A stretch of 11,080 nucleotides of DNA. Source: Candidatus Methylomirabilota bacterium. GTDB lineage: Bacteria > Methylomirabilota > Methylomirabilia > Methylomirabilales > Methylomirabilaceae. Positions 2-11,060 of the stretch are shown here, one piece after another. Positions within the stretch are counted from its first letter, which is position 1; every line of letters begins with the position of its first letter. Where the stretch lies: positions 1 through 11,080 of the forward strand of contig PQAQ01000031.1 in NCBI GenBank assembly GCA_003105305.1, in the 5' to 3' direction. The notes under the pieces were generated by a model. It was given only the letters and a program-made list of their open reading frames with translations. It did no database searches and was not told the DNA's origin. The position numbers and the translations under genes were made by a program.

Positions 2-253
2 GAGAAAGTCACCCAAGATGAAAGGCAGACGAAACTGTCGGGGTTGGCAGGGCTCGGCATCATTGGAACCGTTGTAACTTGCGTTGCCTGTTTTACCCCG
101 TTGGCGGTCACCCTGCTCGGGGTGATCGGGCTGGCGGGCTGGGCCGGGTATCTCGACTACGCGCTCTTCCCGCTCCTGGTCGTGTTTGCCGGACTCGTAC
201 TGCTCGGACTCGCCCGTCAGCGGCGAGAGAGAACACAAGAGGGAGAACACTGA
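2..253 (+). CDS. merF: MerF-like mercury transport protein, 5' end outside window
   Basis: Small inner-membrane protein of the MerF type, which carries Hg(II) into the cytoplasm. The frame is open from base 2, so the true start probably lies just upstream of the window; a TTG at 44 is the only plausible start inside it. Two hydrophobic segments are visible, the first with VTCVACFTPLAV, the second after the loop GWAGYLDYALFPLL, which is close to the MerF signature GYLDY. In the usual family the first helix has a vicinal CC before FTP; here the cysteines are spaced as CVAC, so one has moved three residues back. The tail is basic and short. Its stop TGA overlaps the ATG of the next gene (TGATG), which indicates translational coupling. 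Family assignment is firm; the length is uncertain because of the cut 5' end. Confidence 0.82.
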   Translation, partial: EKVTQDERQTKLSGLAGLGIIGTVVTCVACFTPLAVTLLGVIGLAGWAGYLDYALFPLLVVFAGLVLLGLARQRRERTQEGEH

Positions 254-489
254 TGGCACAAGAGATTATCGTCTACAGTCAACCGGGGTGAGGGTCCTGC
301 CACCAGGAGAAAGAGTTTCTTTCTCATAACGGGATTGCCTTCGTAGACAAGAATATTCAGGAAGACTCGGCAGCGCTGGAGGAGTTGCTGAAACTCGGTT
401 ATCGGGCGACACCTGTCACAGTTATTGATGGCGAGATCGTCGTCGGTTTCGATCGAGGGAAACTTCAGCGACTGCTCGGGCTCAGCTAA
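253..489 (+). CDS. Selenocysteine-containing glutaredoxin-like protein (UxxC)
   Basis: Reads as a 78-residue thioredoxin-fold protein if the TGA at 289-291 (codon 13) is decoded as Sec. The start is MAQEIIVYSQPG, then U13-G-S-C16, the place of the CxxC active site at the end of the first beta strand. The cis-Pro motif ATPVTVIDGE follows at about residues 53-62 and the domain closes with GFDRGKLQRLLGL before a TAA, so the downstream half is a proper glutaredoxin and not read-through noise. A hairpin at 307-325 fits a bacterial SECIS. The ATG overlaps the merF stop; the upstream GAGGGAG serves as ribosome site. Glutaredoxins with UxxC are known in Sec-decoding bacteria. Its place in a mer operon suggests it reduces, or accepts Hg(II) from, the thiol/selenol carriers around it; this role is inferred. 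Automatic annotation would probably miss it or start it after the TGA. Confidence 0.85.
307..325 (+). promoter_or_regulatory. Putative bacterial SECIS hairpin of the glutaredoxin gene
   Basis: Perfect 8-bp stem GAGAAAGA (307-314) with UCUUUCUC (318-325) and a GUU triloop. The first loop base is G and lies 24 nt after the UGA at 289-291, inside the 16-37 nt range known for bSECIS elements. It lies within the coding sequence. Confidence 0.72.
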
Positions 490-518: not shown

Positions 519-803
519 ATGGTTACAGTCCATTGCAGCGGGTGCGGGCAGGAGATCGAGCTTCCGGCGGGGACGCGCTCAGGCGACATCATCGCCTGTC
601 CCAACTGAGCGGGCCTCTCGCTCCGGGTGAGCGAGCAAGACGGTAACTGGTCAGCCGTAGTGCTCAAGACCGCGAGTTGCGCCGTCGGAGATGAAGTCGT
701 CGTCCTTCCCGATGACGTGCGGCCCGGCGATATCATTGAGTGCCACGGGATCACGCAACGGGTGACCTATGCTTACGGCGCCTATGCGCTTGAGAAGATA
801 TGA
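519..803 (+). CDS. Zinc-ribbon selenoprotein with CPNU, LysW-like
   Basis: A 94-residue protein when TGA at 606-608 (codon 30) is read as Sec. The N-terminal half has C6-x2-C9, the stretch QEIELPAGTRSGDIIACPN and then U30, i.e. the fourth ligand of a CxxC...CxxC zinc ribbon is Sec. This half resembles LysW-type zinc ribbons (CG.EIELP...GDI..CP.C). A second half repeats the pattern: VVVLPDDVRPGDIIECHG (about residues 60-77) parallels the first, with C54 and C75 left, so it looks like a degenerate second ribbon ending in VTYAYGAYALEKI. The start ATG at 519 has a good upstream site, GGAGG at 510-514. It lies 29 bp after the glutaredoxin and just before merT, so it belongs to the operon. Possible role: cytoplasmic metal chaperone or Hg(II) scavenger; not known. 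It may be an undescribed selenoprotein family. The only stop inside is the recoded TGA, and the second TGA at 801-803 is the real end. Confidence 0.78.
617..635 (+). promoter_or_regulatory. Putative bacterial SECIS hairpin of the zinc-ribbon gene
   Basis: Perfect 7-bp stem CUCGCUC (617-623) with GAGCGAG (629-635) and loop CGGGU (624-628). The loop begins 16 nt after the UGA at 606-608 and has G as its second base, which meets the bSECIS rules at the short end of the range. Confidence 0.74.
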
Positions 804-815
804 GGCGTGAAAGAC

Positions 816-1247
816 ATGCGAATACCAGATGTGAAGTCCGGATTTTTTGGGATGGTGTCCGCGGCCATCGCTTCACTCTGCTGTCTCCTGCCGCTCGCAG
901 TGATTGTGGTGGGGCTGGGCAGCGGGGCCTTCATGATGACCACCATGCAGTACCGGGCCATCTTCATCCCGGCGGGGATCATCGGGGTCAGTCTCGGCTG
1001 GGCCTTTTACCTTCGTGAGCGCAAGCGATGCAATGCGCTTAGTTGCAGGATGTCAGGTGGACGATTGAATCTGGTATTCCTCTTGCTTGCAACTGTTATT
1101 GTGGCCGGAGCCGTCGCTCTGGACCAGCTCCCGAACTTCACCGCCGACCTGCTGATGCGCGTCACATCCGGTGAGTCGGACACGATGCCGATGTCCGGTG
1201 CCGCTGCGGAGCATTCCGACATGAGCTATGGAGGTGAGACCAAATGA
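816..1247 (+). CDS. merT: MerT mercuric ion transporter
   Basis: Inner-membrane Hg(II) importer that takes the ion from MerP. Three hydrophobic segments are visible. The first has the vicinal pair in SLCCLLPLAV, as in MerT; the loop after the second has CNALSC, matching the second cysteine pair of the family; the third is LVFLLLATVIVAGAVAL. The C-terminus has about 35 extra residues with several Met, Ser and acidic residues (ESDTMPMSGAAAEHSDM), longer than ordinary MerT and possibly metal-binding. The start is ATG 816, with GAGG at 802-805 some 10 nt upstream; GTG 807 is the alternative but would leave almost no spacing. The stop overlaps the next ATG (ATGA). No in-frame TGA occurs: unlike its soluble neighbours, MerT keeps all its cysteines. 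Confidence 0.88.
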   Translation: MRIPDVKSGFFGMVSAAIASLCCLLPLAVIVVGLGSGAFMMTTMQYRAIFIPAGIIGVSLGWAFYLRERKRCNALSCRMSGGRLNLVFLLLATVIVAGAVALDQLPNFTADLLMRVTSGESDTMPMSGAAAEHSDMSYGGETK

Positions 1248-1552
1248 AGACCACGCGTGAGTACGATCGACGCACCTTCCTCGCCTGGGGGTTTGGTGCA
1301 TCGCTCCTCCTCGCTTTGGGGCGAGGGGTAGCCTCAGAGACCGCCGTCGTTCACCTGCGAATTGACGGCATGACGTGAGGGGCCTGACCCCTCGTGGTCA
1401 AGAAGGCCCTGGAAGGGCTGAAGGGCGTCACAAGCGCAGAGGTGAGTTTCAAGGACAAGCTCGCGCGCGTGACATATGAGAAGGGGGTCGTGACCATCGA
1501 GCAGATGATCGAGGCCGTAAAGCGCGCGGGCTTTGTCGCCACGCCCCAATAA
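1244..1552 (+). CDS. merP: MerP-like HMA protein with two selenocysteines (UxxU)
   Basis: Reads as a 102-residue exported heavy-metal-associated domain protein if TGA at 1376-1378 (codon 45) and 1385-1387 (codon 48) are both Sec. The metal motif is IDGMTUGAUP where MerP has GMTCxxCP, so both Hg(II) ligands would be selenolates. The rest is a standard HMA fold: VVHLRIDGMT, VVKKALEGLKGVTSAEVSF, ARVTYEKG, then EQMIEAVKRAGF, ending at TAA. No other stop or frameshift is present. The N-terminus has DRRTFLAWGFGASLLLALGR, which resembles a twin-arginine (Tat) signal rather than the Sec signal of classic MerP. The start ATG overlaps the merT stop and has GGAGGTGAG upstream. Role: periplasmic Hg(II) carrier to MerT. 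UxxC-type MerP-like selenoproteins have, as I recall, been reported from ocean metagenomes; a double-Sec form is the striking point here. Confidence 0.85.
1377..1393 (+). promoter_or_regulatory. Hairpin spanning both UGA codons of the MerP-like gene
   Basis: GAGGGG (1377-1382) pairs perfectly with CCCCUC (1388-1393), leaving loop CCUGA, so the first UGA sits at the base of the stem and the second UGA lies in the loop. It is too close to either UGA to be a standard bSECIS, but the second double-Sec gene has a similar structure. Confidence 0.5.
1405..1419 (+). promoter_or_regulatory. Putative bacterial SECIS hairpin of the MerP-like gene
   Basis: GGCCCU (1405-1410) pairs with AGGGCU (1414-1419, outer pair G-U) around a GGA triloop. 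The first loop G is 33 nt after the first UGA and 24 nt after the second, so a single element could serve both. The stem is short, so confidence is moderate. Confidence 0.58.
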
Positions 1553-1565
1553 GCAGGAGGACGCG

Positions 1566-2657
1566 ATGGGTCCAACAGCAAGATTCCCCATCCTGCCGAC
1601 TACGGTGGTCGGGTCGTATTCGGTGCCGGACTGGTATCCCGTGCTGCAAGAGGGGGTGCAGCGAGGGGCAATGCCCCCCTCGGCCTTTGGTGATGCGAAA
1701 GCGATCGCCGCCCTTGGCGCTATCAAGGATCAAGAGACGGCCGGCGTCGACCTGATCAGCGACGGGGAACTGTTCCGCAGGGACGACAACCGATTCGGCC
1801 CTCCCAACGCCATGATCAACTACTTCGCGGCGAAGATCCCGGGATTCTCGGCCGAGCTTCGGGACCGGAGCAATATCACGCCGCTCGACCCCTCGGCGTC
1901 ACTCCCGGCGCCGGTGGTGACGGACCCGCTCCAGCCGGCGCCGCTGGGTCTCGTAGAGGAACTCCGCTTCCTTCGTCGCTACAGCTCCCGCTCGGTCAAG
2001 ATCGCCATGACCGGGCCCCACATGTTCGCCCGGATCGTGTGGGATGAGTGCTACGGCAGCCCGGAGGTCCTCGCCATGGAGATGGCCGCGATCATCAACG
2101 CCGAGCTGAGGCGGCTGGATCGCGCCGGATGCGACGTCATTCAGCTTGACGAGCCGGTCCTGTGGTTTCGGCCGGACGATCAGGTGTGGGGCGCCAAGGC
2201 CGTCAACGCCTGCTTCCAAGGGGTCAAGCGCGCCAAGCGAGCGATCCATGTCTGTCAGGGCAACTATAACCCAGATCCCACTGCTCATCGCGGGCTACGC
2301 ATCTTTCCCTCAGAGTTCCAGGCCATCCTTCCGGTGATACAAGCCGCTCAGGTCGATCTGGTCCTTATGGCGTTTGCGGCCCTCAAGGAGAAAGACATCA
2401 CTGCCCTCAAGGACTTTCCGAAAGACAAGGCGTTGGGGGTAGGAGTCATTGACGTTCAAGAGCACCGTGTGGAAACGCCGGCACAGGTGGCCAGGACCAT
2501 CCAGCGCGTGCTGCAGTACGTGCCACCCAAGCGCCTCCTTGTCTGCCCGGACTGCGGCCTGAACCATCTGCCCCGTCCGGTGGCGTTCGGGAAGCTTCAG
2601 GCGATGGTCAAAGGGGCAGAACTGGTGCGCCAGGCCCTCTCGGGTAAGCGCCTATGA
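1566..2657 (+). CDS. MetE-like (COG0620) methyltransferase, zinc ligand altered
   Basis: A 363-residue protein matching the C-terminal catalytic domain of cobalamin-independent methionine synthase, as in stand-alone MetE-like enzymes; the N-terminal half of full MetE is absent. Visible family marks: PTTVVGSYSVPDWY at the start, LISDGELFRRDD, KIAMTGPHMFAR, DVIQLDEPVLWF, then the metal site H228-x-C230 (IHVCQGNY) and C330 (CPDCGLNHLP). The zinc-ligand Glu normally found in a motif like VD..LLEFA is replaced here by Met268-Ala269 (DLVLMAFA), so a fourth ligand seems lost. ATG 1566 is chosen because AGGAGG lies 5 bp upstream; it is 13 bp after the MerP-like gene and so in the mer operon. Its substrate is unknown: homocysteine methylation is the family reaction, but the site change and location suggest another thiol or metal-alkyl role. 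That last point is inference. Confidence 0.8.
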   Translation: MGPTARFPILPTTVVGSYSVPDWYPVLQEGVQRGAMPPSAFGDAKAIAALGAIKDQETAGVDLISDGELFRRDDNRFGPPNAMINYFAAKIPGFSAELRDRSNITPLDPSASLPAPVVTDPLQPAPLGLVEELRFLRRYSSRSVKIAMTGPHMFARIVWDECYGSPEVLAMEMAAIINAELRRLDRAGCDVIQLDEPVLWFRPDDQVWGAKAVNACFQGVKRAKRAIHVCQGNYNPDPTAHRGLRIFPSEFQAILPVIQAAQVDLVLMAFAALKEKDITALKDFPKDKALGVGVIDVQEHRVETPAQVARTIQRVLQYVPPKRLLVCPDCGLNHLPRPVAFGKLQAMVKGAELVRQALSGKRL

Positions 2658-3684: not shown

Positions 3685-4197
3685 CTATTGTTGGGCCTCA
3701 AACCGCTCCACTTGCGCCCTGTTCTTCTCCTTCGGGATCATCCCAACGATGGTCACGAGCCTGCCATCCAATTTCGCGGCCTTCCGCAGCGCCTCGAACT
3801 GCTCATCGGCCACAAGCGCGATAAGCTGATCCGTTCTCTCGACCTTAAAGAAGGGAGTGCCGTCTCTGGTGGTGAGCCGGCCTACCGCCTCGAATCGGAT
3901 CCAGGTCGGTGTAAACCCTGCATCCACGACGAGCTTCCTGAGCTTCTCCACCTCGAGTAGCTGGCCTTCCTTCAGCATAATGTCTGCCTGTGCCAACTTC
4001 AAGCTGACCTTTACCGTGTCCACGCCTTCCAGGCGTGTGAGGGCCTTTTGGACCCCATACGCTCAGATGGGTCAGGTCATCCCATCCACGCCCATCTGAA
4101 CCTGCCTGATCTCTGCCAGGGCCAGAATAGGAAACGCCAATGCAAGGAACAAGGCCAACCCGATTAGGCCGGAAGTTTTGGGCGTCTGCTTTCTCAT
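3685..4197 (-). CDS. Exported HMA protein with two selenocysteines (GMTUPIU)
   Basis: A 170-residue protein if TGA at complement 4072-4074 (codon 42) and 4063-4065 (codon 45) are Sec. Before the TGAs comes a clear signal peptide (MRKQTPKTSGLIGLALFLAL, ending ALA before EIRQV), then VQMGVDGMTU42-P-I-U45-AYGVQKALTRLEGV, exactly a GMTCPxC HMA metal site with both Cys replaced. The HMA fold continues to about residue 100 (VKVSLKLAQADIML, EKLRKLVVDAGF). A C-terminal domain of about 65 residues (VGRLTTRDGTPFFKVE...GRLVTIVGMIPKE) is beta-rich and could be a small OB-like fold. The start ATG 4197 has AAGGAGG just upstream. A caller that stops at TGA would begin at 4023 and lose both signal and metal site. 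It lies between a permease and an outer-membrane barrel, so it probably carries metal in the periplasm for export; inferred. Confidence 0.84.
4021..4037 (-). promoter_or_regulatory. Putative bacterial SECIS hairpin of the second HMA gene
   Basis: On the - strand CACGCCU pairs with AGGCGUG (7 bp) around a GGA triloop. The first loop G is 33 nt after the second UGA, within the bSECIS range; it is 42 nt after the first UGA, slightly outside. The loop and its closing U-A pair are the same as in the MerP-like gene. Confidence 0.66.
4051..4073 (-). promoter_or_regulatory. Hairpin spanning both UGA codons of the second HMA gene
   Basis: On the - strand GACCCAU, starting inside the first UGA, pairs with AUGGGGUC with one bulged G; the second UGA lies in the 8-nt loop. 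This matches the layout seen at 1377-1393 in the MerP-like gene, although the two sequences differ. Confidence 0.45.
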
Positions 4198-4246: not shown

Positions 4247-5284
4247 CTACCTGATCATGCTTCCCAAAGCGCTGAAGAGCCGATGCATCAGTTCGAGCGG
4301 GGGGAGGTGGGGGCGAAAACCGAAGAGGCCATATATCCAGGTAGACCCCAGCCCGCCCAGGACTGCCGCCCCGTACAGGAGACCGACCAGGTTCAGACCT
4401 TGCCTGCGGCCAAATGTCCTGACGTAGATCAGCAGATCTTTGGGGTGGATGGCGCTGGCCAGGCAGAAGCTGATGATCCCTGGATAGGAGAGCCCATCCG
4501 TCTTGAATAGGGCGTGGATGACGGGAAGGTTGCCCACTGGCGACAGGAACATCGTCATCGAGAGGGCCGGGCCGACCAGGGCATTGATGAGGTCAGAGGC
4601 GGTGGTTTCCGAGCCCAGGATCTCCGCAAAGCTCATCCACCAAGGTTGTAAGCCGGCGGCGAAGATGATTCCGCCCAGCCCGATCCCCGCGGCAAGCGTT
4701 GGCGCAAAGCCTCGCATCTCCTGTCCGATGAACCCTATCATGGCCCACCACCCTTTCGGGGACAACAGGATGACTCGCCAGGAAGGGAAGATGGCCAGGC
4801 CGATGGAGAACTGTGTGCTCTGCAGCGGCCCTCTAGCCAAGGCATTTACCGGCTTCGGTTGGAGCCAAGTGAGTCCAAAGATCACCACTCCGATCATTAC
4901 AAGGGCCCCCAGCGCGTGCCCGACAGCAAACTCGGCACCCAGCGATAGAGCAAAGATGGCCAGGAAGTGGATCGTCAGGTTCCGGCTGGCGATCAGATAG
5001 GCAAAGGCTGTGGCGATAGAGCGACCACTCGTAAGAAGCTCCCACGCCGCCTCGCGGCTTTTCGCTCGATCCACACTTCCTACAATACCCGCCTGCACGG
5101 CCCGCCAGAGGCCCAGTGTGGGAATTGGAGGGATTGAGGAAAGTCGTTCCCACGTTGAACGTCGATATTGCAAGGCAAGGATGGCTGCCACAAAAAAGCC
5201 AGGACCCCACACCGTGTAGAACAGGGTCATAAATTTGAATAATTCGAAACTATAAAACCACGCTTCTTTCCAAAAACTGACCAT
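4247..5284 (-). CDS. Permease of the ArsP/DUF318 (YraQ) type
   Basis: A 345-residue polytopic inner-membrane protein. It begins with an amphipathic/hydrophobic segment (FKFMTLFYTVWGPGFFVAAI) and has roughly eight hydrophobic helices in two blocks separated by a polar stretch (LTWLQPKPVNALARGPLQST). The second block has GPALSMTMFLSPVGNLPVIH followed by ASAIHPKDLLIY, resembling the conserved core of predicted permeases of the ArsP_1/DUF318 group, some of which export organoarsenicals or divalent metals. It starts 15 bp after the ATPase stop with AAGGAAAGG upstream, so it is co-transcribed. In this operon it is most likely a metal or organometal exporter working with the HMA selenoprotein; the substrate is not shown by the sequence. 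No in-frame TGA occurs. Confidence 0.7.
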   Translation of the reverse strand: MVSFWKEAWFYSFELFKFMTLFYTVWGPGFFVAAILALQYRRSTWERLSSIPPIPTLGLWRAVQAGIVGSVDRAKSREAAWELLTSGRSIATAFAYLIASRNLTIHFLAIFALSLGAEFAVGHALGALVMIGVVIFGLTWLQPKPVNALARGPLQSTQFSIGLAIFPSWRVILLSPKGWWAMIGFIGQEMRGFAPTLAAGIGLGGIIFAAGLQPWWMSFAEILGSETTASDLINALVGPALSMTMFLSPVGNLPVIHALFKTDGLSYPGIISFCLASAIHPKDLLIYVRTFGRRQGLNLVGLLYGAAVLGGLGSTWIYGLFGFRPHLPPLELMHRLFSALGSMIR

Positions 5285-5299: not shown

Positions 5300-7738
5300 T
5301 TAAGGCGTCGGCGGCTGATGCCCGACCCCTTTGATCGCCTCGAAGAAATAGGCGCCGCGACCCCACAGGGAATTGATGAAGATCGACGTCACGCTAGCCG
5401 CCATGGCCACCATCCCCCAGATAGGGTAGATCAAGCCCGTCGCGGCGGCCGGAATTCCGACCCCATTGAACAGGAACGCCAGGCAGACGTTTTGCACCAT
5501 TTTTCGGTAGCTGTACCGGCTGACCTCGTAGGCATCGAGCACGGCACCGAGCCGCTGGTTGAGGATGATCACGTCGGCCGATTCGATGGCGATGTCGGCC
5601 CCGCTGCCAAAGGCGATGCCGACCTCGGCCTGCATGAGCGCCGGTGCATCGTTGATGCCGTCACCCACCATGGCCGTACGGGCGCCCTGCTGAAGCGTGC
5701 GGATCAGCGTCGCCTTCTCGGCCGGCAGCACGCGCGCGTGCACGTCGGCGATACCGGCGGCGCGGGCGAAGTAGCGCGCGGCCTCCTCGTTGTCGCCGGT
5801 GATCAGGCTCGTCCCGATGCCGAGCGCGTGCAGGCGGCGCACCGTCTCCACCGCGTCGGGCCGCAGACCATCGCCGAGCGCCAGCAGGCCCAGCAATTCA
5901 TCCCCCCGTGCCACGCCGATCACCGTCAGGCCTTGCGCTTCGATCGCCTTGATGCGCCCTTCCTGTGGCCGGAGATTCACGGATTGGCTCGCGAGAAAAT
6001 CCGGGCTACCGACCATCAATTGCGAATTACCAAGACGCGCCAGGACGCCTTGACCCGCCACGGCCTCAAATTCCTGCACTTCTGGTAAAGCGATACGCCG
6101 TTTGGTTGCCTCCTCCACCACGGCGCGGGCGAGCGGGTGTTCAGACCCGACTTCTACGGCTCCAGCGAGCGCAAGCAGTTCCTCTTCCGGGCAGGCCACC
6201 GGGACGATCGCCCGCAGCGCGGGGCGCCCCTCGGTCAGCGTACCGGTCTTGTCGAAAACCACGCGCTGCGCCCGTCGCAAAGCCTGAAATGCCTCACCTG
6301 TGCGCATCAGCACGCCGCGTTCGGCCGCCTGGCCCGCGCCCCGTACGATCGACAGCGGCGCCGAGATTCCCACGGCGCAGGGATACCCCATCACCAGCAC
6401 ACTCAGGCCGGCAAACATCGCTCGCCGCAGATCGGGAGTGGATCCAACGACCAGCGGGCCGAGCGCCCAGACGAGGGTGGCGCCGGCCGCGGTGAGCAGC
6501 ACCAGCGGCGTGTAGACACGCAGCACGCGGTCCACGAGATGCAGTAAACCCGGCTTCAGCGCCCGGGCGTCTTCGACGCTCCGGATCACCTGTCGAAGGA
6601 AGCTCTCTTCACCCACCGCCGTGACCCGCACCAGCAGCGTGCCGCGACCGTTCAGGGCCCCGCTCACCATCCGGTCGCCCGAGCGCTTCTCCACGGGAAG
6701 TGGCTCGCCGGTCACGAGCGATTCGTCTACATCCGATTCCCCCACCTCGACCTGACCGTCCACCGGAACCCGTCCGCCTGGTCGAATGCGGACCACGTCC
6801 CCGACGCGCACCTCCTCAAGTGGGACCTCATGCTCCGCCCCGTCTTTGAGGACGTACGCCATGTCAGGCTCAAGGTCCAGCAGCTTCTTGACCGCCTGCG
6901 AACTGCGGGTTTTCACGATCAGCGACAGCCATTCCGAAAAGATGTGATAGGCAAGGACCATCACGGCCACTGAGAAAAACGCGGTCGTCGGATACTCCGG
7001 CAGGTCGAAGGTCAAGCCGACCACGCCGCCGGTCAACCCTGCAAACGCCCCGGCCTCAACGAGCACGTGCTGGTTCAGGATGCCGCGCCGCAGCGCCATG
7101 AAGCCCATGCGCGCAATGTGCCCACCCACGCCGAAGATGACGGTCAGGGCCAGCGCGCCGGCGAGCCACGGCGTGGCGCCACCAAACGTGCCGCGCAACT
7201 GAAGCGCATACGTGCCTGCCCCGAATGCAGCGAGCAGGGTCGAGCCGGACAGCGCCCACCGCACGCCATAACTGCGCAGGACCACAAACGAGAAGGCCAC
7301 CATGCTCGCGATCGAAAATGCGCAGAGCGCAAACCATGGGCTGTCGAGTGGGTACCCCGCCAACCCCATCGCGGCAATGCTCATGGCCAATGCGGCGAGG
7401 AAACGCCCGCGCTCGCGCACCAGCGCCCGCTCTTCTTCCTCAAACGCACGCAGCTTGCGCGGATCGGAGATGGTGTAGCCGATATCCTTGAGGGTCTGCA
7501 GCAGGTCCTCGGCTCGCGCGAGCGCGGGGTCATACTCGATAAGCGCCTGTTCATGGGTCAGGCTCACCGCGACCTTGTCTACGCCGGTCCGCTTGCCCAG
7601 TGCCCGCTCGATGGTGCCGGTACACAACGAACAGTGTAACCCACCGATATGGGCGCGGATTCGGCGGCGGCCTGGTCGCTTCGAAGGCTCGTCGCTCCAA
7701 AAGCGCTGGGAAGATTCAACGGTCATTTCCATGCTCAT
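5300..7738 (-). CDS. Heavy-metal P1B-type ATPase with YPC motif
   Basis: An 812-residue metal-transporting ATPase from ATG 7738, chosen because AGGAGG lies just upstream (7743-7749); an ATG at 7795 would overlap merR. Order of parts: N-terminal HMA domain with GGLHCSLC (C36, C39), membrane helices, actuator domain with VTGEP (about residue 343), the membrane motif GYPCAVG (Y452-P-C454), phosphorylation site DKTGTLTEG (D496), SEHPLA (H534), and the hinge GDGINDAP (residues 692-699). The ion motif is YPC rather than the CPC of Cu/Ag and Zn/Cd pumps, so specificity cannot be read directly. The last helices have FNGVGIP and VTSIFINSL. It lies 11 bp behind merR and ahead of the permease. It probably expels a soft metal from the cytoplasm. 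Unlike the soluble HMA proteins here, its HMA motif keeps Cys. Confidence 0.92.
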
Positions 7739-7749
7739 GTGTGCCTCCT

Positions 7750-8163
7750 TTACGTACTCCTCCCCTCCGATGCGAGGGACTCCAGGATCGGGCACTCACT
7801 GGTGGGGCCGCGGCCGCGACAGGCGGCAGCGAGCTTCATCAGGGCGGCCTTCATCCGTTCCAGGTCGCTGATCCGTGCGTTGATATCGGCAACTTTGGCT
7901 TCGGCCCGTCTTTTAATGTCCGCGCTCGTCGTCTCAGGATTGACGCGCAGAGAAAAGAGCTCTGCGATTTCTTTCAACGAAAAGCCCAGCTCCTGAGCGC
8001 GCCTGATGAATCGGATCCGGTCCACAGCCTCGAGGGGATATTCACGATATCCGGAATCGCGTCGGGGCGGTTCGGTCATGAGCCCTCGCCGCTCGTAGTA
8101 GCGAATCGTTTCGATATTCACGTGGGCTTGCTTCGCCAACTGCCCGATCGTCAATGTCTGCAT
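7750..8163 (-). CDS. MerR-family metal-responsive regulator
   Basis: A 137-residue regulator with the MerR winged helix ([52 protein letters not shown]), the dimerisation coiled coil around residues 78-112 and a C-terminal metal loop C115-RGRGPTSE-C124-PILESL. Metal-responsive relatives have a further Cys before the coil in a motif like TTCADV; here it is TTSADI, Ser80 encoded by AGC. The protein therefore keeps two of the three usual thiol ligands, and its metal response may be altered. It is the first gene of the - strand operon and is preceded by a MerR-type promoter with a 20-bp spacer, so it likely regulates itself and the downstream export genes. Metal could be Hg, Pb, Cd or Zn; Hg is favoured by context only. 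Confidence 0.88.
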
Positions 8164-9682: not shown

Positions 9683-9895
9683 TCACCTCCTTTCCTCCTC
9701 ATCCAGCGCGAGGCCATGAGCGCGCAAGCGCAATAGGAGGCCCGCGCTGAAACATGCGCCAATCGAATCGCAACAGCGGCACAACCATTGGCTGTTCGGC
9801 GGCTTCGGCATCAGCCCTCGCCGCTCGTAGTGGCGAAGCGTTTCGATGTTCACGTAGGCTTGCTTCGGCACCTGCCCTGTGGTCAATGTCTGCAT
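9683..9895 (-). pseudogene. Truncated merR remnant
   Basis: The first 34 codons (MQTLTTGQVPKQAYVNIETL, then RHYERRGLMPKPPN) are a clear copy of the N-terminal helix-turn-helix of the MerR gene at 7750-8163. After that the sequence no longer matches: the wing and coiled coil are missing, apart from a stretch RLRAHGLALDEEE that recalls the [11 protein letters not shown] segment. There is no metal-binding loop. The open frame of 71 codons ends inside the ribosome site of the small Cys-rich gene. Upstream it keeps a MerR promoter. It is most likely a decayed duplicate whose promoter survives to drive the genes behind it; a short DNA-binding peptide that interferes with intact MerR is possible but unproven. 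Confidence 0.75.
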
Positions 9896-9952
9896 AGTCT
9901 CACCTCGCTTCACTTATAAGATAGACCCTGTAGCTAGGTACGGAGTCAAGGG
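9797..9952. repeat. Diverged duplicate of merR 5' part plus promoter, copy 2
   Basis: Second copy of the unit at 8067-8215, with a few point changes and a small insertion in the leader. It belongs to the truncated merR. Together the copies flank the MFS and Cys-rich genes, so they could recombine and delete or amplify that segment. Confidence 0.75.
9918..9949 (-). promoter_or_regulatory. Second MerR-type promoter
   Basis: On the - strand: -35 TTGACT (9944-9949), 20-bp spacer with the imperfect dyad GTACCTAGCTAC, -10 TATCTT (9918-9923). It is a near copy of the promoter at 8181-8212 with a better -10, and would drive the merR remnant, the Cys-rich gene and the MFS gene, under the intact MerR in trans. 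Confidence 0.68.
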
Positions 9953-9981: not shown

Positions 9982-10010
9982 TTGACAAACAACGGCGCGC
10001 AGTTTATTGT
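9982..10010 (+). promoter_or_regulatory. Promoter of the arsR-merB operon
   Basis: Consensus -35 TTGACA (9982-9987), 17-bp spacer, and -10 TATTGT (10005-10010). GTATAT occurs at 10009-10014 and again at 10025-10030, an AT-rich repeat overlapping the -10/start site and a plausible ArsR-family operator. It points away from the MerR promoter at 9918-9949. Confidence 0.66.
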
Positions 10011-10059
10011 ATATATGGTAAATCGTATATCTGTTTTTCTAGTTTATAAAGAGGAACAT

Positions 10060-10440
10060 GTGAGCGCCCTGAGAAAGCTGGTTCCTAAAGAAGAATTTGC
10101 GCTCCTGGAGCTGTCGGCGAAGTTCTTTCGCGGCTTGGGGGACCCGACCCGCTTGAAGATTCTCGAGATCCTTCTCGACGGTGAGCAGAGTGTCTCCGAC
10201 CTCGTTCGTCTGCTCGGCATCCAACAGGGCCGGGTGTCGAATCACCTCGCCTGCCTGAAATGGTGCGGGTATGTCACGACCGCCACTAATGGGCGCTACA
10301 CGCTCTATCGTATCGCTGATAAGCGAGTGAAGCGAATCCTTCAGCTCTCGCGCGGGATGGTAGCCAAGAACGCCGAGCATCTCTGGGCCTGCACGCGCAT
10401 CGCAGACACCCGGAAACCACGGGCCACCATGGGTAAGTAG
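10060..10440 (+). CDS. ArsR/SmtB-family metal sensor, CmtR-like
   Basis: A 126-residue winged-helix repressor from GTG 10060, which has GAGGA four bases upstream; the longer frame to 9982 would start within the -35 box. Family marks: FRGLGDPTRLKILEIL, DLVRLLGIQQGRVSNHL and the wing NGRYTLYRIAD. Thiol ligands are C65 and C69 in the recognition helix (HLACLKWCG) and C111 in the tail (LWACTRI). This C-x3-C plus C-terminal Cys set matches the Cd/Pb sensor CmtR of mycobacteria, not the ELCVC site of ArsR. It lies 2 bp before merB and likely releases DNA on binding Hg(II), Cd(II) or Pb(II), so controlling merB. Hg is favoured by its partner gene. Confidence 0.86.
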   Translation: MSALRKLVPKEEFALLELSAKFFRGLGDPTRLKILEILLDGEQSVSDLVRLLGIQQGRVSNHLACLKWCGYVTTATNGRYTLYRIADKRVKRILQLSRGMVAKNAEHLWACTRIADTRKPRATMGK

Positions 10441-10442
10441 CA

Positions 10443-11060
10443 ATGTGGGGACCATTAACTGCAACTGAACGCTGTGCCCGGAAGGCGCTGCTGGAACTGA
10501 TACTCAGGACCGGTCGAGATCCCGGCCTGAAGGCGCTGGCCTCACGCCTTGAGGTGTCCGAGGCCCTGGCCGATGAGCTGCTCTCTGCGCTTGAGCAAAA
10601 AGGTCTCCTCGTACGAGATCAGCGCTCGAACCAGATTGCAGCGGCATTTCCGCTTTCGACCCGTCCGACCCAACATCAGATCATGCTGAAGGGCAAGGGG
10701 AAGCCACGTTACGCAAATTGCGCCATCGACGCCCTCAGTGTGGGGCCGCTGTTTGGCGCAGCCGTTATCGTGAATGCCACGTGTCCGCACTGCGGACGAT
10801 CAATTCGTATTCACGTCGAGGAAAACCAGATTGCGGCGGTCGAGCCTCCAGGCGCCGTGGTCTGGGACGGCCTTCCTGGACCCCTTATGAAAAGGGCGCC
10901 CAAGTCGGATTTGGCCGAAGCCTACTGACCCTCAACCAACTTCTTCTGTACGGAAGAAGAGGCGCACAAATGGAGCATCGCACACGGGACGCCAGACGGT
11001 AAGGTCCTGCTGCTTGACGAGGCCTTGACGCGAGCCCGAGAGCTCTTTGGACAATTGTAA
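10443..11060 (+). CDS. merB: Organomercurial lyase MerB with selenocysteine at the catalytic site
   Basis: Reads as a 205-residue alkylmercury lyase if the TGA at 10926-10928 (codon 162) is Sec; the family is about 210 residues. It cleaves the carbon-mercury bond by protonolysis, giving the hydrocarbon and Hg(II). The N-terminal winged-helix part (residues 10-70, ALASRLEVSEALADELLSAL) is followed by the catalytic part: C93-AID96-ALSVGPLFG matches the Cys96 and Asp99 region of the plasmid R831b enzyme. C114-PHC-G lies near the Cys117 position. Beyond the TGA the frame gives U162-PSTNFFCTEEEAHKW and LLLDEALTRARELFGQL, the normal MerB C-terminus (Cys159 followed four residues later by FF). A 161-residue stop form would lack the catalytic Cys and C-terminal segment. 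The start is 2 bp after arsR with a weak ribosome site, suggesting coupling. Sec in MerB is new to me. Confidence 0.88.
10940..10959 (+). promoter_or_regulatory. Putative bacterial SECIS hairpin of merB
   Basis: CUUCUUC (10940-10946) pairs perfectly with GAAGAAG (10953-10959). A U-G pair (10947-10952) can extend the stem to 8 bp with loop GUAC. The loop starts 19-20 nt after the UGA at 10926-10928 and G is first or second in it, as in known bSECIS elements. Confidence 0.72.

What the first reader, a model, noticed from the sequence alone, without database searches (positions are those of the whole stretch)
10443..11060. MerB with selenocysteine in place of the catalytic Cys159
The frame of an otherwise normal organomercurial lyase is broken by a single TGA that aligns with the catalytic Cys159 (four residues before FF), while the Cys96 and Asp99 equivalents (C93, D96) are intact and the C-terminus continues to a TAA. 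A perfect 7-bp hairpin lies 19-20 nt downstream. Selenolate binds Hg far more tightly than thiolate and is a stronger nucleophile at neutral pH, so the chemistry and product release of such an enzyme would differ. I know of no described Sec-MerB.
Basis: partly seen in the sequence, partly recalled or inferred. Interest (0 to 1): 0.97.

Follow-up and report, generated by a model that had tools for sequence, protein, structure and literature searches.

The report
Selenium version of mercury-cutting enzyme MerB
In an uncultured bacterium and dozens of its relatives, the gene for the mercury-detoxifying enzyme MerB has a UGA codon exactly where the enzyme's mercury-binding cysteine normally sits; it is likely read as selenocysteine, and the gene lies among other mercury genes with the same feature, so this detoxification system would work with selenium in place of sulphur.

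The parts
10443..11060 (+). merB, read through one TGA as Sec; 205 aa
   Evidence: PF03243 97.6 bits against cut-off 27
10926..10928 (+). TGA codon, predicted Sec162, at the place of MerB Cys159
10719..10730 (+). codons for C93-A-I-D96 (Cys96 and Asp99 equivalents)
10940..10959 (+). predicted bacterial SECIS hairpin CUUCUUCU(GUAC)GGAAGAAG, loop 19 nt after the TGA
   Evidence: codon constraint in relatives
9982..10440 (+). ArsR-family regulator immediately upstream of merB; found beside merB in most loci of the order
2..253 (+). merF (5' end cut by the contig end); follows merB directly in same-genus loci; ends in a TGA that acts as a stop
   Evidence: PF11431 51.5 bits against 24.3
253..489 (+). 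glutaredoxin-like protein with predicted Sec (QPGUGSC, TGA 289-291)
   Evidence: the 33 best matches in 35 genomes of the order all have 1 TGA inside
307..325 (+). predicted SECIS hairpin of the glutaredoxin gene
   Evidence: 0.3% of 300 synonymous resamples as stable
519..803 (+). small LysW-like zinc ribbon, CxxC...CPNU (TGA 606-608)
   Evidence: the 21 best matches in the order all have 1-2 TGA inside
807..1247 (+). MerT-like membrane protein (below the Pfam cut-off)
   Evidence: 27.6 bits against 32.9
1244..1552 (+). MerP-like protein with UxxU in place of CxxC (TGA 1376-1378 and 1385-1387)
   Evidence: of the 16 best matches in the order 15 have 2 TGA and 1 has 1
3685..4197 (-). second MerP-like protein with UxxU (TGA 4074-4072 and 4065-4063)
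4247..5284 (-). ArsP-like permease
   Evidence: PF03773 56.5 bits against 32.3
5300..7795 (-). heavy-metal P-type ATPase, Cys-type HMA domain
   Evidence: TIGR01525 533.8 bits against 346.25
7750..8163 (-). MerR-family regulator (just below the MerR equivalog cut-off)
   Evidence: TIGR02051 144.2 bits against 150.85

Best explanation
This is a gene of the MerB organomercurial-lyase family whose in-frame UGA, exactly at catalytic Cys159, is predicted to be read as selenocysteine with the help of a hairpin just downstream, so that the enzyme likely holds and cuts organomercury with a Cys93-Asp96-Sec162 triad. Shown by sequence: the frame, the alignment, the Sec machinery in the same genome, the TGA/Cys-only column, the hairpin and codon constraint in TGA rows, and a neighbourhood of further TGA-for-Cys genes (glutaredoxin, zinc ribbon, two MerP). 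Inferred: the selenolate, deprotonated at neutral pH, is the second mercury ligand without needing Asp99 as base; Asp96 would supply the proton that releases the hydrocarbon; Hg(II) left on Cys93/Sec162 would be passed to the Sec-containing glutaredoxin, zinc ribbon or MerP and then exported by the P-type ATPase, because no MerA was found.
Against: No protein, read or transcript evidence. The window's hairpin alone is weakly significant, and no SECIS family of Rfam matched. The outer hairpin pairs are not better in TGA rows (pair 7: 45 of 53 against 41 of 56; pair 8: 8 of 53 against 24 of 56), and the inner pairs hardly covary: sequence is conserved. Rows are related, so codon p-values overstate. 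dN/dS is higher after the TGA than before it in 9 of 15 non-independent pairs, some with saturated dS. Three TGA rows (L064, L078, L080) have their upstream part in another frame; of the 38 genomes with TGA rows, G077 gave no selB match and G046 one below cut-off. The protein is below the NCBIfam equivalog cut-offs for MerB (77.5 against 193; 71.7 against 200), so substrate is inferred. MerA was searched only in this 80%-complete genome, and MerA is known from Rokubacteria (PMC8261052, passage). Nothing shows that the neighbours accept mercury from MerB.
Confidence: 0.8

Rival explanations
1. UGA is a true stop; the product is a 161-residue MerB lacking the Cys159 half of the active site (a pseudogene or a truncated protein with another role).
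For: Gene callers appear to end it there: 108 of 123 homologous proteins are 177 aa or shorter. UGA is a stop elsewhere in the window (merF, zinc ribbon). dN/dS is somewhat higher after the TGA than before in 9 of 15 genus pairs.
Against: Downstream codons stay in frame and aligned, with dN/dS below 1 in 15 of 15 pairs; the column holds only TGA or Cys; the downstream hairpin is constrained at synonymous sites.
Confidence: 0.04
2. A sequencing or assembly error changed a Cys codon to TGA.
For: TGA differs by one base from TGC or TGT; the window is a draft metagenome contig.
Against: The same TGA stands in 54 of 67 covering rows, from 38 genomes, together with the hairpin.
Confidence: 0.01
3. 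Sec is inserted, but the protein is not an organomercurial lyase: it is a mercury or other metal ligand, or acts on another organometal.
For: Scores below NCBIfam MerB equivalog cut-offs; related SaoL is called an organometallic lyase; an N-terminal winged-helix match (HTH_IclR 21.3 bits, cut-off 22).
Against: C93, D96 and the Cys159 site are all kept, the fold matches MerB over its length, and merF, merT-like and merP-like genes lie beside it.
Confidence: 0.15

Closest known systems
SaoL, MerB-like organometallic lyase of the SAO (Sec-assisted organometallic) operon, NCBIfam NF040728
   Same: MerB-like selenoprotein; the SAO operon has six selenoprotein genes. Listed with motif CU and one Sec in PMC13188914 (passages).
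   Different: Ours scores 65 bits against a cut-off of 140. The SaoL profile ends at a Cys column aligned with Cys159; the position before it favours Ser over Cys. Some Cys-type MerBs have Cys-Cys here (P0034, P0053; 3f2g is a C160S mutant). So the CU of SaoL is probably Cys159-Sec160, while here Sec replaces Cys159 itself. Inference: no SaoL sequence was seen, and the programs read U as C.
Classical MerB (3f0o/3f2g, 1s6l) and MerB2 (5c17)
   Same: Fold, Cys96 and Asp99 equivalents, position of the third catalytic residue.
   Different: Cys159 is a predicted Sec; 22-26% identity; no MerA over cut-off in the 80%-complete genome.
'Organic mercuric lyase MerB2' in a list of predicted prokaryotic selenoproteins (PMC7435645, table passage)
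   Same: Names an organomercurial lyase as a selenoprotein family.
   Different: The passage gives no sequence or Sec position; it may be the same family as SaoL.
Known mercury-related selenoproteins: MerP in ocean metagenomes (PMC2398784, table passage), UxxU metal-binding protein NF041115, Uxx-star glutaredoxin-like NF041212
   Same: The window's MerP-like and glutaredoxin-like proteins match the last two (89.1 and 53.1 bits), so Sec in such proteins is not new.
   Different: Both are below the cut-offs (95 and 66); their place beside a Sec-MerB is what is added here.

Membership tests
MerB (Pfam PF03243) | Profile score over the curated cut-off | tested here: met
   97.6 bits against 27
MerB (Pfam PF03243) | Catalytic Cys96, Asp99 and Cys159 | tested here: inconclusive
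   C93 and D96 present; the third is a TGA, predicted Sec
MerB equivalog (NCBIfam NF009710, NF033555) | Score over cut-off | tested here: not met
   77.5 against 193; 71.7 against 200
MerB | Cleaves the C-Hg bond of organomercurials | not testable with these tools
   needs an enzyme assay
SaoL (NCBIfam NF040728) | Score over cut-off | tested here: not met
   65 bits against 140
SaoL (NCBIfam NF040728) | CU motif | tested here: not met
   Residue before U is Y here, and H, L, T and others in relatives
SaoL / SAO operon | Neighbours SaoB, SaoC, SaoP, SaoT, SaoX | not tested
   Not searched for singly; no Sao profile but SaoL appears in the listed NCBIfam matches (at most 25 each) of the 10 window proteins
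Bacterial selenoprotein gene | In-frame UGA aligned with Cys of homologues | tested here: met
Bacterial selenoprotein gene | SECIS hairpin downstream (stem 4-16 bp, loop 3-9 nt with G in its first two positions, loop 16-37 nt from UGA, energy -7.5 kcal/mol or lower; model in PMC13188914) | tested here: met
   8 bp, GUAC, 19 nt; -8.1 for the drawn hairpin with a wider loop, -9.8 for 47 nt; no Rfam SECIS family matched
Bacterial selenoprotein gene | Sec machinery in the genome | tested here: met
Bacterial selenoprotein gene | Selenium in the purified protein | not testable with these tools
   needs mass spectrometry

The most novel reading that the evidence does not exclude
A mercury operon rebuilt on selenium: selenolates line the whole path, from the catalytic MerB through glutaredoxin and zinc ribbon to UxxU MerP carriers, so that tightly held Hg(II) hops from selenolate to selenolate and is exported, letting organisms without MerA break down methylmercury.
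Probability: 0.35. Interest if true: 0.88.

Novelty: new variant of a known kind. Interest (0 to 1): 0.7.

Why it matters
MerB is the enzyme that breaks the carbon-mercury bond of methylmercury, and its Cys96, Asp99 and Cys159 were described as strictly conserved and catalytic (PMC8261052, passage). Here much of a phylum of mostly uncultured bacteria appears to have replaced Cys159 with selenocysteine, and databases seem to hold these enzymes cut off at the UGA, so MerB surveys may undercount or misread them. The same paper names an open question: how MerB catalysis can go on in genomes without MerA. A selenoprotein operon is a testable answer. It also gives a natural Cys/Sec series for the MerB mechanism.

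Tried and rejected
Single-sequence folding of the window's candidate hairpins gave weak z-scores (-1.52 merB, -1.26 glutaredoxin, 0.39 zinc ribbon, -0.09 MerP, -1.21 second MerP), so the SECIS case for MerB rests on comparison; the zinc-ribbon hairpin found no support under the published limits. As a control, 3 of 37 Cys codons in the window's genes are followed by a hairpin of -7.5 kcal/mol or lower under the same limits. Rfam gave no SECIS match (two weak microRNA-type matches below gathering). A MerA search found nothing over cut-off; the best match (318.8 bits against 454.45) reads to me like a dihydrolipoamide dehydrogenase beside an acyltransferase gene (recalled, not scanned). I considered L043's shifted GGUC hairpin as an independent SECIS origin, but some Cys rows (L128, L146, L157, L162) carry nearly the same 5-bp hairpin, so it is weak. 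The tree (112 rows, 129 columns, quick method) needs at least 3 Sec/Cys changes but is poorly resolved (51 of 109 inner branches open); direction is not claimed. Recoding of all UGA codons was rejected: UGA ends merF and the zinc ribbon in this window. The SaoL paper (PMC9879109) and a 2025 selenoprotein-neighbourhood paper (PMC12013261) are not held, so SaoL's Sec position is inferred; PMC5029168 holds none of the mercury terms.

Full report

IS IT MORE THAN CHANCE. PF03243 was found in 50 of 95 genomes of the phylum. I took the window and all the other matches, 70 loci in all; they gave 72 alignment rows, of which 67 have a letter in the Cys159 column: 54 TGA, 7 TGT, 6 TGC, nothing else; 5 rows have gaps there. 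The 54 TGA rows come from 38 genomes (my count); three of them (L064, L078, L080) have their upstream part in another frame. In a second collection (80 loci out of 104 pattern matches, partly the same genomes, 80 being the cap) 84 rows gave 27 TGA, 52 Cys (one of them a spurious second row of L162) and 5 gaps. TGA rows there are Rokubacteria/Methylomirabilota records, except one Myxococcales (L087) and one Acidobacteria (L092, L099) metagenome genome; these rows nest among the Rokubacteria rows and may be misbinned. Of the 123 homologous proteins listed in two searches (the second scored only 7999 candidates and listed 120 of 135), 108 are 177 residues or shorter, 94 of them 159-161, as expected if gene callers stop at the UGA; their DNA was not checked.

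SELENOCYSTEINE EVIDENCE. The genome has selA (515.9 bits, cut-off 22.8), selB (385.1, 242.25), selD (398.6, 125; itself with one TGA) and a tRNA-Sec with anticodon TCA (65.9 bits, gathering 47). selB is over its cut-off in 84 of 95 genomes of the phylum, and in 36 of the 38 with TGA rows (G077 no match, G046 a fragment below cut-off). Six inner stem pairs of the downstream hairpin are all formed in 52 of 54 distinct TGA rows (not in L043 and L044; L044 forms the stem with a wider loop) and in 1 of 56 Cys rows, L119. In the 53 same-register TGA rows the loop starts with G in all, GGUC in 45. The two outer pairs do not set TGA rows apart (45 and 8 of 53, against 41 and 24 of 56), and the inner pairs hardly covary. 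The mean energy z-score against synonymous resampling is -1.16 (26 rows) and -1.82 (20 rows) for the two large TGA groups, -0.20 for the window's genus (5), -0.29 for two further rows, 0.24 for L043 and 0.03 for 56 Cys rows. Codon choice in the hairpin is nearly fixed: over 44 distinct TGA rows GAA for Glu in 42 of 42, TCG for Ser in 37 of 37, CGG for Arg in 38 of 39, against 19%, 44% and 28% in the rest of the same genes (relatedness makes the p-values too small). In the window, loop distance (19 nt), stem (8 bp) and G-first loop fit the published bacterial SECIS model (PMC13188914, passages). Codons after the TGA have dN/dS below 1 in 15 of 15 genus pairs (0.10-0.92), against 0.22-0.38 before it; it is higher after the TGA in 9 of 15; the pairs are not independent and some dS values are saturated.

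NEIGHBOURHOOD. The window also holds a glutaredoxin-like gene (QPGUGSC), a LysW-like zinc ribbon (CPNU), two MerP-like genes with UxxU, merF, a MerT-like gene, an ArsP-like permease, a P-type ATPase and MerR- and ArsR-family regulators. In 35 genomes of the order the 33 best glutaredoxin matches all have one TGA inside, the 21 best zinc-ribbon matches one or two, and of the 16 best MerP matches 15 have two and one has one; weaker MerP matches, many of them domains of long proteins, mostly have one or none. The order has 18 merB matches; I looked at the surroundings of 16 (left out: the window and a contig-edge fragment in G002). Of these 16, 14 have a Sec glutaredoxin close by; the other two (L225, L237) have merB at or near a contig end. 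The usual order is arsR, merB, (merF), Sec-glutaredoxin, Sec-zinc ribbon, merT, UxxU merP. In families f2-f4 of the order merB keeps Cys159 while the neighbours keep Sec. Of 25 loci from the second collection (L085-L109) 5 have a Sec glutaredoxin beside merB, one a partial match, and in 19 none was found; the zinc ribbon of the six lacks Sec.

MECHANISM. Known for Cys-type MerB: Cys96, Asp99 and Cys159 are the essential residues (PMC8261052, passages), and Hg(II) leaves by attack of thiol or thiolate, with Cys159 or Cys96 released first and MerA as the physiological acceptor (PMC4525700, abstract and passages). Recalled, not from a call: a selenol has a pKa near 5 and binds Hg(II) more tightly than a thiol. 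Sec162 would therefore be charged without help and be a strong second ligand, while release would be harder. The Sec-bearing neighbours are the natural acceptors. No MerA was found over the cut-off (genome 80% complete; other genomes not searched; MerA is known from some Rokubacteria), so export by the P-type ATPase is the likely end. All of this paragraph that concerns the Sec enzyme is inference.

NOVELTY. A MerB-like selenoprotein, SaoL, is in print (PMC13188914 table passage; its source paper is not held). The window protein is far below the SaoL cut-off (65 against 140) and lacks the CU motif. Scoring 16 typed variants against NCBIfam showed that the last SaoL column (159), aligned with the Sec of relative L061, is Cys, and that the column before it favours Ser (40.0 bits) over Cys (38.0). 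Some Cys-type MerBs have Cys-Cys at 159-160 (P0034, P0053; 3f2g is titled a C160S mutant). The likely reading is that SaoL's CU is Cys159-Sec160, whereas here Sec replaces Cys159. In the listings of the ten paper searches (titles and starts of abstracts) I saw no paper on Sec at MerB Cys159 or on a Sec-rich mer operon in Methylomirabilota; I opened passages of eight papers only, and most subscription journals are not held.

Noticed in passing
L061 (G040:C148), relative: A MerB-family paralogue with TGA at both the Cys96 and the Cys159 columns: a possible double-Sec active site.
   Followed up: partly
loci among L058-L082, same class: A second paralogue group with CGFE in place of CAxD (Asp99 to Glu) and Sec at the Cys159 column; of its 20 distinct rows, 17 have a hairpin stem of 7 bp or more, mostly CUCUUCC(GGUC)GGAAGAG.
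   Followed up: partly
window 1 and 11080; L225 (G026:C7): A related assembly breaks at the same bases just after merB, and G026 has two copies of the glutaredoxin-merP block; the window's ends, read together, would give merB followed by merF as in relatives. Probably a repeat boundary, possibly a circle.
   Followed up: partly
L227, L228, L229, L233-L235, L238 (zinc-ribbon relatives): The zinc ribbon has Sec in both knuckles (CxxU...CPNU) in several genomes.
   Followed up: no
window 1566-2654: A methionine-synthase-like (MetE core) gene follows merP; also next to merP in L221 and L226.
   Followed up: no
window 9683-9913, minus strand: A short frame resembling the N-terminus of the MerR regulator at 7750-8163: perhaps a MerR remnant.
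   Followed up: no
L011 (G000:C215): selD itself carries an in-frame TGA; Sec-type SelD is known (recalled).
   Followed up: no
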